The notes under the pieces: generated by a model
The model's input: the letters and a program-made list of their open reading frames with translations, nothing else
Database searches by the model: none
Told to the model about the DNA's origin: nothing
Translations under genes and position numbers: made by a program
Source: Candidatus Cloacimonadota bacterium
GTDB taxonomy: Bacteria > Cloacimonadota > Cloacimonadia > Cloacimonadales > Cloacimonadaceae
Assembly: GCA_028703735.1 (NCBI GenBank)
Contig: JAQVMI010000031.1
Coordinates: 1-11,057, forward strand
Direction of reading: 5' to 3'
DNA: 11,057 nt
Part shown: piece by piece, positions 369 through 6,150 of the stretch
Layout of the letters: the number at the start of each line of letters is the position of its first letter
How positions within the stretch are numbered: position 1 is the stretch's first letter

Positions 369-3300
369 ATGAAAAAACTGTTTTTCATTCTGTTGCTGTT
401 ATCAATGATAATCGTTTTATCTGGGACACGGGCATCGGGTTATGCTGTATTTGGACCTGTTCCGGTAAATACCATGAACCAATTTAACCTTAGCGGGGTG
501 ATTCGTGATTATAATAATGTAGCCATCGATGGGGTTACGATTTCTGCCACAGGATTGAGTGGCACTCAGACTCTCACCAATGGCACATACCAGATTACCG
601 TCCCACGAGGTTGGAGCGGAACAATCACTGCCAGTAAACCAGGTTGGGTTTTCAGCCCTAACGGCAAAACATACAATAACGTAACAAGCAATCTCGTCAA
701 TAATAACTATAGCGGGAGACTGGCGCAGCCAGTTTTCACTCCCCCCGGAAATTCATATACAACTACTCAATATGTAGCTTTACAATCCCCAGCAACAGGA
801 AATGTGAAGTTTAGATACTCTATCTTTTCGACGCCAAGCTATTACTCGGGAAGCATTTATTACAATGAGCTCCCGATAGTTATCCAAAACAACACCACGA
901 TTAAGGCAGTAGCATATATTGAGGGAAGACCAGGAACCGTCTCAGTCGTGGCTGAAGCCTACTATGAAATTGCCCCAACTCAATTGAATTTATTAACGTT
1001 TGAAGTTATTGATGCTGATGTGAATGACAACCAGATTTATTATGTGTCGCTTATAAGCGATGATGGCTTTATCCGGTTACCAGTAGATACTAATAACAAT
1101 GTGGCATTTAGTAAAACTTTGCTTGGCAACTGTGCATTGGGTTTTTCAGAGATTAAGCGCTTTGAGATTCAAAAAAGTACTGGCGAATTGATCGGGCATA
1201 TTGAATTTAAATATACAATTGAAGATTTTAATGACAATTTTAAGGTTCGTGGAACGCTTATTGTTCATGGACAGCATACACCAAACAACAATCCCGGAGG
1301 AGAGAATTGGGAATATTACGAGCCAGGTGAGCACATGGTCTCAATGTTGATAAAACCAGAAGCCATCCATGCAGACCGGGAACCTTTGTTACTAGTACAT
1401 GGTGTGGGTGGCTCGTATCCATACTTTGGAGACTTGTTTATCAAACAGCTTAATGGTAACCCCAACACTACGATAGATGACACAAATGACATCTGGGAGT
1501 TCTATTATCCTTATGACCAGCAGATCGAATTATCTGCAACCCTTTTAGGGAATGCCGTGGCGACTGTGAGAGCGAATAATTACCAGCCGTATCCGGGGAG
1601 ATTGAATATAATTGCCCACAGCATGGGTGGGCTTGTAACCAGGAAATACATCCAACAATGTCAAGACAATGACACAGGGATTGGAAAATTCGTCATGCTT
1701 GGAACACCAAATCATGGTTCACATTCCTCGTTCAGAATCAGCAATCCACTAACATATCCTTATTCATCAATAGCGAATGATGTATTAATAAAGCAAGATA
1801 AATTCTCCCCTTCAATCCACCAAATGTTTCCAGGTTCATCATTTCTCACCAACCTGAATGCATCTTATCCTCGACAATTGCATCCTGGGGCACCTGTACA
1901 GGACACATATTTGGTTGTTGCCGGTACTAATAACCCGTTATTTTGGGCAAGCTCTGAGGTATTTTCACTCGCCAATGACGATCTGGTGGTTTCTATACCG
2001 AGTGCAAGTTTGTTAAACAAATCTATACCATTGGCCACAGTTAACGAGAACCACAACTCCCTTCGTGGAGTGTATATGCCTCCAAATTATTGCATTCCGT
2101 TCAATCCTGGATTTCTTTCTGTGTTCTTTTCTGACAACTACACCGCAAGCAATGAGCCTTTTGGTAATTCGGTAATTAATTTCTGGACATCGCTGCCAAT
2201 AACTAATTTATTGGGGAAGTCTTCCCTGGTTGTAATGCAGTTCAATGCTGAATTCAACACAGATTTGATAGATGTCTACAAAGTGCGGTTTCGGGATATT
2301 TATAAGTTAAGATTCAGGGACTATGAGGGTTTCTTTGACGGTATCAATCCAGACCAAATCAATAATCGTTTAAAAACTTGTGAGAATGGCACTTCGCCCG
2401 TCAAGACGTATATGTTTATGGAAAAACAGCTCGGTACCAGAAGGTGCTTGACTGATAACATCTCGTCCAGCAATTATGAGCTTAAACTGTACAATCGTGA
2501 GGGAGATTGGATAAAAACGATAGCAAACGCCCTCCAAGTTTTTGATGCCAGCACCTCAAGTTTGAATATCAATCTTGCACCAGGGGAAATCGCCTTAGCC
2601 AACTTTACAACCAAAAATGGCTGGCTGGAGAGTAAAAGAACCCGTGATAATCGTAACAGAACTCTTATAGAAGAAATGTACTATGTTGATTCGACCATTG
2701 ACTCGCTGATATTCCACATCTGTGCAGAAGGTGACACTATTGGTTTTGCGAACCACAATGCCCATCTTTTAGATCCGCAAGGTACAATAATCGACCCTGC
2801 CTATGCTTCCACATCACCAGAAATCGAATTCAGTGAAGATATCAGTGCAGGGAGCGCATTCTACTACGTGACAAATCCATTAACCGGTACATGGAGATTT
2901 AGATATAGCGATAATTTACAGGGAAGTTCCAGTGCCATGTATGTAGACAGCAATATCAACATCAATATCAATATTCAGGACACCCTGTTTTCGATAGGAG
3001 ATCAGGTACAAATTAATATACCCCAGCCTCTGCCAATGGTTTACAGCAATCCTCAAGTGTCCGTATCTGTGAGCTTTACGGATAGCAATGGCATTGTACA
3101 ACCATTACCTGATCTAATCGTGGTCTATAATCCTGTTGATTCCCTCTATGAAGGCTCATTTATCCCCGATGTCCCCGGTGATTATACCCTAAGTGTGAGT
3201 TTTCAGTGTCTGGTTGACGGATCGACAGTTTATCGGTATGTGGAAAAAACTATTCCCATTCATAGCTATCAGATACCCTTAACTGTATATCCTACAAGCG

Positions 3301-4721
3301 GAGAGGGAAATCTACCCACTACTGTCACACTACGTTGGAATTCAGTTTCCCTGGCAGACACATATAGTCTGACGATATTTGAAGCTGGTGATTCCTTATC
3401 CACGGTTAGCGTTAGTGTAAGCGATACTACCTACACCGCCCCCAACCTTGAACTTGGCAAGGAATACTATTGGCAAGTAAGTGCTGTTAACTCGTATGGA
3501 GTTGGTCTGCCTTCTGATCCGCTGAATTTCTTCACAAAACTACCCCAACCTCTTCTGCAAACCCCAGCCAACAATGCTATAGATTTGCCGCAAACAGTTA
3601 ATCTTGCCTGGCAAGCCGTCCCAGGAGCACACCGTTATCACCTGCAATTCACTGATGATCCTCTCTTTAGCAATTACTATATCAACGATTCATTAGTAGT
3701 GTCGCCTGGTTTAGAACTGAATGGTTTAAGCAATCTGGAAACTTATTACTGGCGGGTAGCCTCTGTGGACGAAAGGGGAACCAGCGACTGGTCTGAAACG
3801 CGCTCTTTCATGGTCCGCAACTATATGATTAGTTTCCCCCAAACTGTTCAGATGCGCGAAAATGAAGCTCTCACGCTCTATCTTGCCAACTATATTGACG
3901 ACTATAGCCCCGGGCAATTTGAAATCACCGTAAGTGGAGCGGCGAATCTGACCGCGACTGTAAGTTACGATAGGATTGTCATTACTCCCTTGGAGAATTG
4001 GTATGGCACCGAAGACTTGCTGCTTACTATTAACGATACTACGCGCTCTCTGCATAAGAATAACTCATCTTCCCGAACCGTTGTTTATCAGCAAACGATC
4101 TCGGTGCTTGTTACCGAGCTAAACAGTCTTCCCACTATGACTATGGGAGAGAACCTGATGCTTTGGAATAGTGAGGATAAAACCCTGAATCTCACCCCCT
4201 ATTTAGCTGATACCGATAATCCTATAGGTGAGATTCAAATTACCGGTATTGCCAGTGCACACATAGGTATTAGCAGTATTGGACAAAGTATCACTTTCCT
4301 TCCCCAACCCGGATGGTTTGGGCAAGAGCTAATCGAAATACGGCTTAGCAATGGTATGCCCCGTGCTATTGTAACGGCCCGCGATAAGAAATCGGTGGGT
4401 AGGACTGAAAATAACTACACCAGCTATTACATTCTGGTAAACATAATAGACGCTACCCCGGTGATTTCGGATTGGTCGGTTACCTTAAATGAGCTAAACC
4501 TTTTTTGGGACACGATACCTGGGGCAGATACATACCGTGTATTTAGTTCGGATACGATTAATGGAGTGTTCACCGATGTAACGAGCTCTGGCAGCTTAAC
4601 CCTGCAAAATGGCGAGATGAAATGGCAGCGGCTCACAAGCGCAGCCAGAGCCTTCTACTACATAAAAGAAAGTAAGGGCAGCAGAACCATGACAAGTAAA
4701 CCCATCTTGTTTAATAAGTAA
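369..4721 (+). CDS. secreted multidomain alpha/beta hydrolase (lipase/PGAP1-like) with Ig- and FnIII-like modules
   Basis: A 1450-residue protein predicted to be exported: it starts with a Lys-Lys then a long hydrophobic stretch (residues 4-17) and a likely cleavage site near residues 22-26. Order of modules as I read them: carboxypeptidase-regulatory-like beta domain (about 39-117); a chitobiase-C-terminal-like module (about 120-202); an uncharacterised beta-rich stretch; an alpha/beta hydrolase (about 335-600); two Ig-like sandwiches (about 770-968, with the hallmarks NPLTGTWRFRY and PGDYTLSV); two FnIII domains (about 969-1058 and 1059-1147); two cadherin/Ig-like units (about 1150-1365, each with a W-[YF]-G-x-E-x-L core); and a final FnIII-like end. 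Hydrolase evidence: oxyanion-hole motif HGVGG (344-348), nucleophile elbow AHSMGG with Ser418, and candidate Asp537 (ANDDLVV) and His562 (NENHNS). The AxSxG elbow is that of Bacillus-type lipases; the substrate (lipid ester, other ester or amide) is not determined. A GGAG ribosome site sits 7 nt before the ATG. The beta modules suggest cell-surface attachment or binding to a solid substrate. Confidence 0.85.
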   Translation: MKKLFFILLLLSMIIVLSGTRASGYAVFGPVPVNTMNQFNLSGVIRDYNNVAIDGVTISATGLSGTQTLTNGTYQITVPRGWSGTITASKPGWVFSPNGKTYNNVTSNLVNNNYSGRLAQPVFTPPGNSYTTTQYVALQSPATGNVKFRYSIFSTPSYYSGSIYYNELPIVIQNNTTIKAVAYIEGRPGTVSVVAEAYYEIAPTQLNLLTFEVIDADVNDNQIYYVSLISDDGFIRLPVDTNNNVAFSKTLLGNCALGFSEIKRFEIQKSTGELIGHIEFKYTIEDFNDNFKVRGTLIVHGQHTPNNNPGGENWEYYEPGEHMVSMLIKPEAIHADREPLLLVHGVGGSYPYFGDLFIKQLNGNPNTTIDDTNDIWEFYYPYDQQIELSATLLGNAVATVRANNYQPYPGRLNIIAHSMGGLVTRKYIQQCQDNDTGIGKFVMLGTPNHGSHSSFRISNPLTYPYSSIANDVLIKQDKFSPSIHQMFPGSSFLTNLNASYPRQLHPGAPVQDTYLVVAGTNNPLFWASSEVFSLANDDLVVSIPSASLLNKSIPLATVNENHNSLRGVYMPPNYCIPFNPGFLSVFFSDNYTASNEPFGNSVINFWTSLPITNLLGKSSLVVMQFNAEFNTDLIDVYKVRFRDIYKLRFRDYEGFFDGINPDQINNRLKTCENGTSPVKTYMFMEKQLGTRRCLTDNISSSNYELKLYNREGDWIKTIANALQVFDASTSSLNINLAPGEIALANFTTKNGWLESKRTRDNRNRTLIEEMYYVDSTIDSLIFHICAEGDTIGFANHNAHLLDPQGTIIDPAYASTSPEIEFSEDISAGSAFYYVTNPLTGTWRFRYSDNLQGSSSAMYVDSNINININIQDTLFSIGDQVQINIPQPLPMVYSNPQVSVSVSFTDSNGIVQPLPDLIVVYNPVDSLYEGSFIPDVPGDYTLSVSFQCLVDGSTVYRYVEKTIPIHSYQIPLTVYPTSGEGNLPTTVTLRWNSVSLADTYSLTIFEAGDSLSTVSVSVSDTTYTAPNLELGKEYYWQVSAVNSYGVGLPSDPLNFFTKLPQPLLQTPANNAIDLPQTVNLAWQAVPGAHRYHLQFTDDPLFSNYYINDSLVVSPGLELNGLSNLETYYWRVASVDERGTSDWSETRSFMVRNYMISFPQTVQMRENEALTLYLANYIDDYSPGQFEITVSGAANLTATVSYDRIVITPLENWYGTEDLLLTINDTTRSLHKNNSSSRTVVYQQTISVLVTELNSLPTMTMGENLMLWNSEDKTLNLTPYLADTDNPIGEIQITGIASAHIGISSIGQSITFLPQPGWFGQELIEIRLSNGMPRAIVTARDKKSVGRTENNYTSYYILVNIIDATPVISDWSVTLNELNLFWDTIPGADTYRVFSSDTINGVFTDVTSSGSLTLQNGEMKWQRLTSAARAFYYIKESKGSRTMTSKPILFNK

Positions 4722-4803
4722 GCATCTGCAGCTTAAGGTGTAAGAAATGAATGGCTTAATTAACGTGCTGATGAACAAGATAGATGTTTGTAAAGGAAAT
4801 TTT
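4722..4803 (+). other. 82-nt spacer between hydrolase and FGE-fold gene; start choice for the downstream gene
   Basis: An in-frame ATG at 4747 would add 19 residues with no signal-peptide character. The ATG at 4804 has AAAGGAAA at 4792-4799 in front and opens a textbook signal peptide, so 4804 is preferred. The spacer holds only a 5-bp inverted repeat (TAAGC/GCTTA) and no T-run terminator, which favours co-transcription of the two secreted proteins. Confidence 0.6.
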
Positions 4804-5949
4804 ATGAAAAAGCTAATAACTATAATAGCCCTGCTGAGCCTCACCCTGCTCTTTGCCAATGTTGCGCCGGTGGTTAGCAATATGAGCGCAGCCCAACGCA
4901 GCGATGGCAGCTACCTGGTGGATGTTTACTACAGTGCACTGGATGCAGATAGTGCCCTTTTAACTATCAGCCTGATGGTATCAAGCGATGGCGGCACCAC
5001 CTGGAATATCAGTTGCGACCTGCTTAGCGGTGATATTGGAGCAAATATCAGCCCTGGAACCAATAAACACATCATCTGGAACCTGGGCATGGAACACCCG
5101 AATATCGTGGCAAATTACCATTTCAAGATAACTGCCGATGATGGCTATGTTCCGGTTCCTATAGGTTTTGCTTATGTCCCCGGTGGTACCTTCACCATGG
5201 GTAGAACTGCTGGAACAGGAGATAGCGGCGAATTGCCCACCCATAACGTTACCTTGAGTTCCTTTTACTTAGGCAAGTACGAGGTATCGCAGGCGGAGTA
5301 TTCCCAGTATATGCAACCGGGTTATAACTGGACAAGTAGCTATGGTCTTGGAAATAATTATCCTGCCTATTATGTTTCCTGGTATGCCATCTTGAAGTAT
5401 TGCAATCTACGCAGTATGGCAGAGGGCTTAACCCCTGTCTATACAATTAGCGGTACCACCAACCCTGCCAGTTGGGGCACAGTTCCCACTTCCAGCAATG
5501 CCACCTGGAATGCAGCAATCTGCAATTGGGCAGCGAATGGCTACAGATTACCCACAGAGGCAGAATGGGAATATGCATCGCGGGGGGCAACCAATACTCC
5601 GGATTATCTTTATAGCGGCTCTAACGACATCAATACTGTGGCTTGGTATTACGACAACAATACTCCCTATGGAACCAAGCCAGTCGGCACCAAATCAGCC
5701 AATGGCCTGGGTTTGTATGATATGAGTGGTAACGTCTGGGAAAGGTGCTGGGATTGGTATAGCAGTTCCTATTACAGTAGCAGCCCCGGCACTAATCCGA
5801 AGGGTCCTGCGAGCGGGTCCTACCGTGTGAAGCGAGGCGGTTACTGGTACGATAGTGCCAGCAGCTGCCGTGTTGCGAGTCGGAGCTACGACTCCCCGTA
5901 CTACAGCGGCAACTACCTCGGCTTCCGGCTCTGCAGGGCGGGTCTGTAA
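4804..5949 (+). CDS. secreted FGE-sulfatase / C-type-lectin-fold (SUMF1-like) protein with a hypervariable-looking C-terminus
   Basis: A 381-residue exported protein. Signal peptide: Met-Lys-Lys then hydrophobic residues to Ala18, cleavage probably after LFA. Residues about 20-117 form a beta domain rich in D/S (VDVYYSALDADSALL, SSDGGTTWN, GTNKHIIWNLG), of the type often placed before FGE domains in secreted proteins. The FGE-sulfatase domain runs from FAYVPGGTFTMG (122-133) through RLPTEAEWEYASRG (248-261), GNVWE (309-313) and VKRGG (342-346) to LGFRLCRAG (372-380). Family members include the formylglycine-generating enzyme and EgtB-type oxidases, but also many binding proteins. The first catalytic Cys of human FGE (336) aligns with Asp350 here, and only Cys355 is left near the second, so enzymatic FGE activity is unlikely and a ligand-binding role more likely. 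Residues 347-371 are almost all Tyr/Ser/Asp/Gly/Asn in GC-rich NNC codons, unlike the rest of the gene, which suggests a DGR-type variable region. It follows the hydrolase gene closely and may share its transcript. Confidence 0.88.
   Translation: MKKLITIIALLSLTLLFANVAPVVSNMSAAQRSDGSYLVDVYYSALDADSALLTISLMVSSDGGTTWNISCDLLSGDIGANISPGTNKHIIWNLGMEHPNIVANYHFKITADDGYVPVPIGFAYVPGGTFTMGRTAGTGDSGELPTHNVTLSSFYLGKYEVSQAEYSQYMQPGYNWTSSYGLGNNYPAYYVSWYAILKYCNLRSMAEGLTPVYTISGTTNPASWGTVPTSSNATWNAAICNWAANGYRLPTEAEWEYASRGATNTPDYLYSGSNDINTVAWYYDNNTPYGTKPVGTKSANGLGLYDMSGNVWERCWDWYSSSYYSSSPGTNPKGPASGSYRVKRGGYWYDSASSCRVASRSYDSPYYSGNYLGFRLCRAGL
5821..5949 (+). other. candidate DGR variable region (VR) with 3' initiation-type segment
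   Basis: Between the framework codons for VKRGG and GFRLCRAGL the codons are TAC TGG TAC GAT AGT GCC, AGC AGC TGC CGT GTT GCG, AGT CGG AGC TAC GAC TCC and CCG TAC TAC AGC GGC AAC TAC CTC. Eighteen of these 26 code for Y, S, D, G, N or L and each is reachable from AAC or AAT by changing only A; 15 of the 18 end in C. All six Tyr codons are TAC, while TAT is frequent upstream in the gene. The constant codons (TGC CGT GTT GCG, CGG, CCG, GGC TTC CGG) contain no A. The A-poor, GC-rich stretch at 5920-5946 would correspond to the initiation-of-mutagenic-homology end. No template repeat copy is found elsewhere in the window, so this remains a pattern-based inference. Confidence 0.5.
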
Positions 5950-5989
5950 CCTTTTAGGATTCTTACCTTTTTACCTTTTGCATAGTAGT

Positions 5990-6008
5990 GACAGTCGCCC
6001 CGACTGTC
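5990..6008 (+). other. perfect 8-bp hairpin 3' of the candidate variable region
   Basis: GACAGTCG (5990-5997) and CGACTGTC (6001-6008) are exact inverted repeats around a 3-nt CCC loop, 40 bases after the stop codon of the FGE-fold gene. There is no T-run after it, so it is not a normal intrinsic terminator. DGR target genes carry a short hairpin/cruciform of similar stem length just downstream of the variable region, required for efficient retrohoming in the Bordetella phage system; position and size fit, the loop sequence differs. It could also be a REP-like repeat. Confidence 0.6.
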
Positions 6009-6012
6009 TTCA

Positions 6013-6029
6013 GCACACGAGGCGTGTGC
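6013..6029 (+). other. second perfect hairpin, 7-bp stem with 3-nt loop
   Basis: GCACACG (6013-6019) and CGTGTGC (6023-6029) pair around AGG, only 4 bases after the previous hairpin. The motif CACRCGAGG recurs at 6066-6074 just before a T6 run (6075-6080), and GCGTG (6022-6026) can alternatively pair with CACGC (6066-6070). The alternatives resemble an anti-terminator/terminator choice, but this is speculative. Confidence 0.5.
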
Positions 6030-6076
6030 AATTACGGCGAAGGGACAAAGCTATGCAGCTACGATCACGCGAGGTT

Positions 6077-6150
6077 TTTTGACTTATAATTCCGCCCCAA
6101 GGAATCTAATGCAGTCCTCTAACTACACAGGGCGGAATTATGAGTTAAAA
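6077..6150 (+). repeat. 21-bp inverted repeat (long RNA stem-loop, 32-nt loop)
   Basis: The left arm 6077-6097 and right arm 6130-6150 pair along all 21 positions in + strand RNA, 19 as Watson-Crick and 2 as G-U (6081/6146 and 6085/6142). The core is AATTCCGCCC with GGGCGGAATT. In minus-strand RNA the two wobbles become C-A mismatches, so the structure favours + strand transcription. It could be a 3'-UTR stabiliser or a small MITE-like element; it has no T-run on the 3' side, which argues against an ordinary terminator in the + direction. Confidence 0.6.

What the first reader, a model, noticed from the sequence alone, without database searches (positions are those of the whole stretch)
5821..5949. 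Putative diversity-generating retroelement variable region in a secreted C-type-lectin-fold protein
The ligand-binding C-terminus of the FGE-fold protein shows the hallmark of adenine mutagenesis. Eighteen of 26 codons at 5842-5919 are derivable from AAC/AAT by changing A only, 15 of them end in C, and the invariant codons lack internal A. The segment is GC-rich and its codon use departs from the rest of the gene. FGE/CLec folds are the classic DGR target (Mtd, TvpA). No template repeat or reverse transcriptase is in the window, so this would be a remote target of a DGR elsewhere.
Basis: partly seen in the sequence, partly recalled or inferred. Interest (0 to 1): 0.75.

Follow-up and report, generated by a model that had tools for sequence, protein, structure and literature searches.

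The report
Retroelement-written variable region, partner missing
The tail end of this secreted bacterial protein carries the signature of a mutation-making retroelement that rewrites binding sites, but the retroelement itself was not found in the incomplete assembly of this genome.

Summary
The window's FGE/C-type-lectin gene (4747-5949, likely start 4804) ends in a diversity-generating retroelement (DGR) variable repeat, about 5811-5935. Relatives in the same family carry complete DGRs; the template repeat (TR) of one (G041) reads GGNWNNNANNCRVANRNNNNPNN..., as predicted. Against it the window VR differs at 18/33 template-A and 4/59 other positions. A paralogue in the same genome differs from the window at 18/33 template-A but only 1/59 other positions. 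Their third codon positions agree at 29/30 in the VR but 152/327 upstream (p=2e-8), as copying from a template would give. The nearest solved structure is the DGR target TvpA. No intact RT, Avd or TR was found in this 80.8%-complete assembly; only an RT fragment running into a transposase-like frame lies near another VR gene. So it is a remote or stranded target; current activity is undecided. Extra: a pyrimidine tract, CCTTTTTRCCTTTTGCA, lies 16 bp after the stop codon; 11 of its 12 exact copies in 49 genomes follow a VR gene by 14-16 bp, the twelfth lying at a contig start. It is outside TR homology: a candidate target-recognition signal.

The parts
4747..5949 (+). DGR target gene: FGE-sulfatase/C-type-lectin-fold protein, 400 aa; likely real start ATG at 4804 (381 aa, MKKLITIIALLSLTLLFA... 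looks like a signal peptide)
   Evidence: PF03781, E=1.5e-49; database copy P0001 is 381 aa
5811..5935 (+). variable repeat (VR), full stretch homologous to the template repeat of relative G041 (GAGCGGGTC ... TCTGCA)
5842..5919 (+). mutable core of the VR: 16 codons that are AAC/AAT in the G041 template, all ending in C or T here, interspersed with invariant A-free codons
5966..5982 (+). conserved post-stop pyrimidine tract CCTTTTTACCTTTTGCA, outside TR homology; candidate cis signal of DGR targets
5990..6008 (+). perfect 8-bp palindrome with 3-nt loop (GACAGTCG CCC CGACTGTC); the same motif follows own VR paralogue L005 and also occurs in own locus L017, where the script saw no VR gene; probably a dispersed repeat
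6013..6029 (+). second short palindrome (GCACACG AGG CGTGTGC), also elsewhere in the own genome (L157)
6036..6050 (+). purine-rich stretch GGCGAAGGGACAAAG, like one that lies just downstream of the pyrimidine tract at several relatives' VR genes; possible right arm of an imperfect inverted repeat (weak)

Best explanation
The segment is the variable repeat of a DGR target gene. A DGR reverse transcriptase copied the RNA of an A-rich template repeat, misreading A as any base, and the cDNA replaced the 3' end of this gene (mutagenic retrohoming). AAY codons thus became NNY codons, which are never stop codons, and 16 residues, by homology to TvpA on the ligand-binding face of a secreted C-type-lectin-fold protein, were randomised. 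The same TR type also wrote the paralogue on contig C2. The TR/RT is not on this contig and was not found in the assembly, so the gene is a remote target, served in trans by an unassembled DGR or left behind by one since lost. Shown: the A-biased, template-like pattern, and complete DGRs in relatives, one of them with the matching TR type. Inferred: the act of retrohoming in this lineage, ligand binding, and trans service.
For: Window VR vs G041 TR over the 92-nt core: 18/33 A and 4/59 non-A positions differ, p=5e-7 (over 113 nt 20/38 vs 8/75). The 7 cis TR/VR pairs that the script caught show 0-1 non-A mismatches out of 58-61. Window vs own paralogue L002: 18/33 vs 1/59, p=3e-9; the other 3 of the window's 4 non-A deviations are shared, implying a common species TR. 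Third positions 29/30 identical in the VR vs 152/327 upstream; 6 of 7 VR pairs show such an excess, 0 of 4 control pairs. Entropy 3.23 bits at 16 template-Asn sites vs 0.93 over 219 other domain columns, 112 of the 119 listed homologues used. Avd over its curated cut-off and an RT beside the G041 TR. TvpA is the top hit by sequence (E=7e-39) and by fold.
Against: No intact RT, Avd or TR found in the own assembly. The best matching TR lies in another genus and has 4/59 non-A mismatches, against 0-1 in cis pairs. Own pair window/L003 does not show a significant third-position excess (18/30 vs 149/334, p=0.13), so not every own VR-like paralogue shares this template. No population data.
Confidence: 0.95

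Rival explanations
1. Stranded target: the VR was written by a DGR that this lineage has since lost; it no longer changes. (This is a rival about the present state, not about the origin.)
For: No intact DGR gene found. Contig C414 holds about 28 codons of a DGR RT (61-88% aa identity to 13 relatives' RTs; 84% nt over 112 bp to G011's RT), about 125 bp downstream of VR gene L006 and running into a transposase-like frame. L006 itself shows 11/58 non-A mismatches, as if eroding. VR genes also occur in near-complete relatives without any RVT_1 match: G015 (99%) and G043 (92%).
Against: The assembly is only 80.8% complete. The fragment's neighbour carries the other (type S) VR, whereas the window is type P. 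Window and L002 still differ at only 1/59 non-A positions while 18/33 A positions differ, so this pair is not visibly eroded.
Confidence: 0.45
2. Ordinary diversifying selection on a ligand-binding loop of a lectin-like protein, without a retroelement.
For: Binding sites can evolve fast, and FGE-fold proteins are numerous here (12 matches in this genome).
Against: Selection on protein does not keep third positions identical (29/30) where upstream third positions agree at 152/327, nor leave 58 of 59 non-A positions unchanged between paralogues. Pairs with non-VR paralogues show no such pattern (0 of 4).
Confidence: 0.02
3. Gene conversion among FGE paralogues spread a C-terminal cassette; variation is recombination of pre-existing blocks.
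For: VR genes share their 3' ends, and window and L005 share a post-stop palindrome block.
Against: Conversion copies all positions alike; here the differences fall on template-A positions (18/33 vs 1/59), and relatives carry AAC-rich templates, several beside an RT. Block sharing between VRs was not tested.
Confidence: 0.02

Closest known systems
Treponema denticola TvpA (PDB 2y3c) and its DGR
   Same: FGE-type C-type-lectin protein; best sequence (E=7e-39) and fold match (TM 0.77 by target length); its C-terminal stretch aligns with the window VR. That this stretch is TvpA's VR is recalled.
   Different: Other phylum; here no RT/TR found in the assembly, and the model has an extra N-terminal beta-rich part before the FGE domain.
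DGRs of relatives in the same bacterial family (G041, G001, G029, G034, G037 and others)
   Same: Same target family and VR architecture, and the post-stop tract; the TR of G041 is of the window's type.
   Different: There RT, Avd and TR sit beside the VR gene; here they were not found. The other four named have type-S TRs.
Trans-acting and transposon-damaged DGRs of Thiohalocapsa PB-PSB1 (PMC10907252, passages seen)
   Same: Candidate remote VRs that match a TR at non-A sites, and loci broken by transposons.
   Different: There a matching TR exists in the same genome and metagenome diversification was shown; here neither.
Bordetella phage BPP-1 DGR target site (PMC3240598, passages seen, abstract among them)
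   Same: A cis element just downstream of the VR, beyond TR homology.
   Different: In BPP-1 it is a GC-rich hairpin/cruciform with a 4-nt loop; here the conserved element is a pyrimidine tract with poor hairpin support.

Membership tests
Diversity-generating retroelement target (VR) | VR near-identical to a TR except at template adenines | tested here: met
   18/33 A vs 4/59 non-A mismatches to the TR of a relative; own paralogue 18/33 vs 1/59. The TR is from another genus, not the own genome.
Diversity-generating retroelement target (VR) | VR at the C-terminus of a C-type-lectin-fold protein | tested here: met
   PF03781; TvpA top hit by sequence and fold; model mean pLDDT 80.5
Diversity-generating retroelement (complete element) | DGR reverse transcriptase in the genome | tested here: not met
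   0 RVT_1 matches; only a fragment on C414; assembly 80.8% complete
Diversity-generating retroelement (complete element) | Template repeat in the genome | tested here: not met
   Inferred-TR query: the two VRs plus 4 hits of 14-17 nt. G041-TR query: only the C2 VR at E<=0.001; it did not list the window's own VR, so its reach to diverged copies is limited.
Diversity-generating retroelement (complete element) | Accessory protein Avd | tested here: not met
   Only a 25.5-bit hit on C211, below the 80-bit cut-off
Diversity-generating retroelement target (VR) | Hairpin/cruciform just downstream of the VR, as in BPP-1 | tested here: inconclusive
   A perfect 8-bp palindrome lies 54 bp after the VR but recurs elsewhere in the genome. 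DNA folding of 11 related flanks: fraction of shuffles as stable 0.03-0.86.
Diversity-generating retroelement target (VR) | Population variation confined to template-A positions | not testable with these tools
   No reads; the database cluster of the window protein holds one member (P0001). Between-species variability fits.

The most novel reading that the evidence does not exclude
In this bacterial family the DGR recognises its targets by a conserved pyrimidine tract (CCTTTTTRCCTTTTGCA and close forms) 14-16 bp after the target's stop codon, instead of the GC-rich hairpin known from BPP-1. The tract tags cis and remote targets alike and so lets target genes be found in genomes where the RT is missing or lost.
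Probability: 0.4. Interest if true: 0.65.

Novelty: new member of a known kind. Interest (0 to 1): 0.45.

Why it matters
A large DGR survey, Roux et al. 2021 (PMC8144416, passages seen), states that its approach would not detect remote targets, whose VR is not next to the RT. This gene is such a target, recognised from codon pattern alone and then confirmed by relatives. The genome holds up to eight FGE genes with VR-like ends, from at least two template types. The codon-position inversion test and the post-stop tract could be used to count remote and stranded targets, and the tract raises a testable question about how DGRs find targets without a clear hairpin.

Tried and rejected
Chance codon bias: the NNY excess alone is weak (p=0.05) and another part of the gene reaches it too, so it was not used as proof. 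Phage origin: no DNA match to 5700-5960 in the phage collection. RTs with 441-474-aa frames in relatives such as G003, G004, G007 were set aside as group II intron type, by frame length and score only. Own Avd-like hit on C211 (25.5 bits, cut-off 80) rejected. DNA hairpin as explanation of the post-stop tract: an imperfect pyrimidine/purine inverted repeat is visible by eye in some flanks, but the consensus fold is weak (-2.7 kcal/mol, 9 pairs, 2 with a change on both sides) and shuffles are often as stable; left open. Contig breaks at VRs as a sign of population variation (L008 ends inside the VR; L003 66 bp and L004 233 bp from a contig end): suggestive, but a non-VR paralogue (L010) breaks too; not used. 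DGR RT in the 24 genome-contig loci: none by tblastn at 1e-3, with a positive control that rang (first tried). Literature: the two searches pairing DGR with Cloacimonetes/Cloacimonadota gave 1 and 0 papers. A search for orphan targets listed 12 of 77 papers, two of them on DGRs (PMC3521204, PMC4372165), neither read; one for a pyrimidine or T-rich DGR signal listed 12 of 212, none on DGRs. That is absence from these listings, not proof of novelty. Wu et al. 2018 was not held.

Full report
What is there. The window is contig C198 of a 2.50-Mb, 472-contig assembly judged 80.8% complete. The best matches among named genomes are Candidatus Cloacimonadota/Cloacimonetes MAGs, so the organism is very probably of that phylum (inference; the genome itself is unnamed). 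The gene at 4747-5949 encodes an FGE-sulfatase-family protein; the database copy is 381 aa, giving a start at 4804 and a signal-peptide-like N-terminus. It is one of 12 FGE matches in this genome. By reading, eight (window, L002-L008) have VR-like C-termini, L008 being cut by the contig end and L007 fitting a TR poorly (17/59 non-A mismatches); L009-L012 do not, or only doubtfully.

Checking the observation. Taken alone the pattern is weak: 'derivable from AAY by changing A' is the same as NNY, and 22/26 vs 242/374 gives p=0.05; NNC 17/26 vs 122/374 gives p=0.001.

Templates in relatives. PF00078 finds an RT in 28 of 49 genomes of the family and none in the own genome; some frames are of DGR size (344-370 aa), others of group II intron size or longer. 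The G041 locus carries, in order on one strand, an FGE gene ending in a VR, an HRDC-domain frame, Avd (NF033474, 88.9 bits over a cut-off of 80; PF22296), the RT and a TR. The TR translates as RGGNWNNNANNCRVANRNNNNPNNGNNNIGFR. Among the TRs read two main types stand out: type P (TGCCGGGTTGCCAATCGG...CCG and variants) fits window and L002; type S (TGCACCGTTTCCAATCG...GCGACC and variants) fits own paralogues L004-L006 and includes the same-genus TRs of G001 and G006.

Template-A specificity. Over the 92-nt core the window differs from the G041 TR at 18/33 A and 4/59 other positions (p=5e-7); L002 at 21/33 and 3/59. The seven cis pairs that the script caught (L030, L031, L033-L036, L038) show 0-1 non-A mismatches in 58-61; in six other TR loci (L029, L032, L039, L040, L041, L044) no VR gene end was caught. 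Window and L002 differ from each other at 18/33 template-A and 1/59 other positions and share three non-A deviations (5853, 5877, 5905), so both probably derive from one species TR that differs from G041's at those three sites.

Codon-position inversion. Window vs L002: third positions 29/30 identical in the VR, 152/327 upstream (p=2e-8), while first and second positions are 0.70 vs 0.74. Window vs G041 gene 27/30 vs 154/343; L002 vs G041 28/30 vs 131/330; the three pairs of L004, L005, L006 23-25/30 vs 0.40-0.51. Window vs L003 gives no significant excess (18/30, p=0.13), nor do four control pairs that include a non-VR paralogue. Protein-level selection does not produce this; copying from a template does.

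Protein level. Among 112 of 119 listed homologues, the 16 template-Asn positions have mean entropy 3.23 bits; the other 15 VR positions 0.76; the remaining 219 domain columns 0.93, none reaching the template-Asn median. The closest solved structure is TvpA, by sequence (E=7e-39) and by fold of an AlphaFold2 model (mean pLDDT 80.5; Foldseek E=4e-21).

Where is the DGR? An inferred TR query finds the window and C2 VRs plus four hits of 14-17 nt. The RT of G041 finds one fragment, C414:2380-2556: about 28 codons, PKERIISVAAFRDRVVHHALENIIVPIL, 61-88% identical to 13 relatives' RTs, 84% nt identical over 112 bp to G011, lying about 125 bp after own VR gene L006 and running into a frame with transposase similarity (DDE_5, 27.2 bits against a cut-off of 27). 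L006 has 11/58 non-A mismatches. So one DGR of this lineage has decayed; whether the type-P DGR is intact in the missing fifth of the genome is open.

A post-stop signal. Many VR genes of types P and S share a pyrimidine tract about 14-16 bp after the stop codon (window 5966-5982). In the own genome the pattern HCCTTTTTRCCTTTTGC has 5 hits with at most one mismatch, all five after VR-like genes (window, L004, L005, L006, L007), and 9 with two mismatches, none after an FGE gene (one, L155, tripped the script's loose motif but is not FGE-like); the reversed control pattern has 6 hits, so the two-mismatch hits are at chance level. Of the other own VR-like genes L002 has a shorter form, L003 none, and L008 is cut. 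In 49 genomes CCTTTTTRCCTTTTGCA has 12 exact hits, the reversed control none; 11 lie 14-16 bp after a VR gene's stop and the twelfth 32 bp from a contig start, where the gene would be cut off. A looser form occurs after 21 of 29 genes whose VR fits a TR (9 or fewer non-A mismatches) and 2 of 26 others (those two being own L006 and L007), p=1e-6; 22 of the 23 start 14-16 bp after the stop, one (L034) at 6; in the 400 bp upstream it occurs in 0 of 55 and at +48 to +400 in 1 of 55 (55 of 60 rows used; pattern written after seeing flanks). Eight TR-fitting VR genes lack it, among them L038, a cis pair. It is absent from the 3' flanks of 13 TR stretches, so it is not copied from the TR. BPP-1 needs a 24-bp element with inverted repeats at this place (PMC3240598, passages seen); here the conserved part is a tract, and hairpin support is poor. 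A shared ancestral 3' flank is the alternative to function; the low third-position identity upstream argues against mere recent ancestry, but this was not tested formally.

Mechanism and confidence. That a DGR wrote the VR: 0.95. That the element is still active on it: about 0.5. That the post-stop tract is a recognition signal: 0.4.

Noticed in passing
L074 (G000:C414) 2380-2556: Fragment of a DGR reverse transcriptase, running into a transposase-like frame and followed by what looks by eye like an FGE N-terminal fragment (1728-1964): debris of a decayed DGR in the own genome.
   Followed up: partly
window 6077-6150: Imperfect 21-nt inverted repeat with a 32-nt spacer (MITE- or terminator-like); a similar left arm lies downstream of paralogue L005 (L080 near 7380).
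   Followed up: no
window 5990-6029: Two short palindromes that recur at L005 and, one each, at own loci L017 and L157: probably a dispersed REP-like repeat that landed between the pyrimidine tract and a purine stretch.
   Followed up: partly
L060, L062, L071: Three FGE genes of one Verrucomicrobia MAG, with VR-like ends, share by eye a different G-rich sequence after the stop codon, hinting that lineage-specific post-VR signals may be general.
   Followed up: no
L164 (G015), L102 (G043): VR genes in 99% and 92% complete relatives without any RVT_1 match: possible stranded targets.
   Followed up: no
window 369-4721: 1450-aa probably secreted protein with a lipase/PGAP1-like alpha/beta-hydrolase region and an fn3 domain, directly upstream of the DGR target.
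   Followed up: no
L031 (G022): TR and its VR both carry one extra codon relative to other type-S TRs, so a template insertion appears to have been passed on to the target.
   Followed up: no
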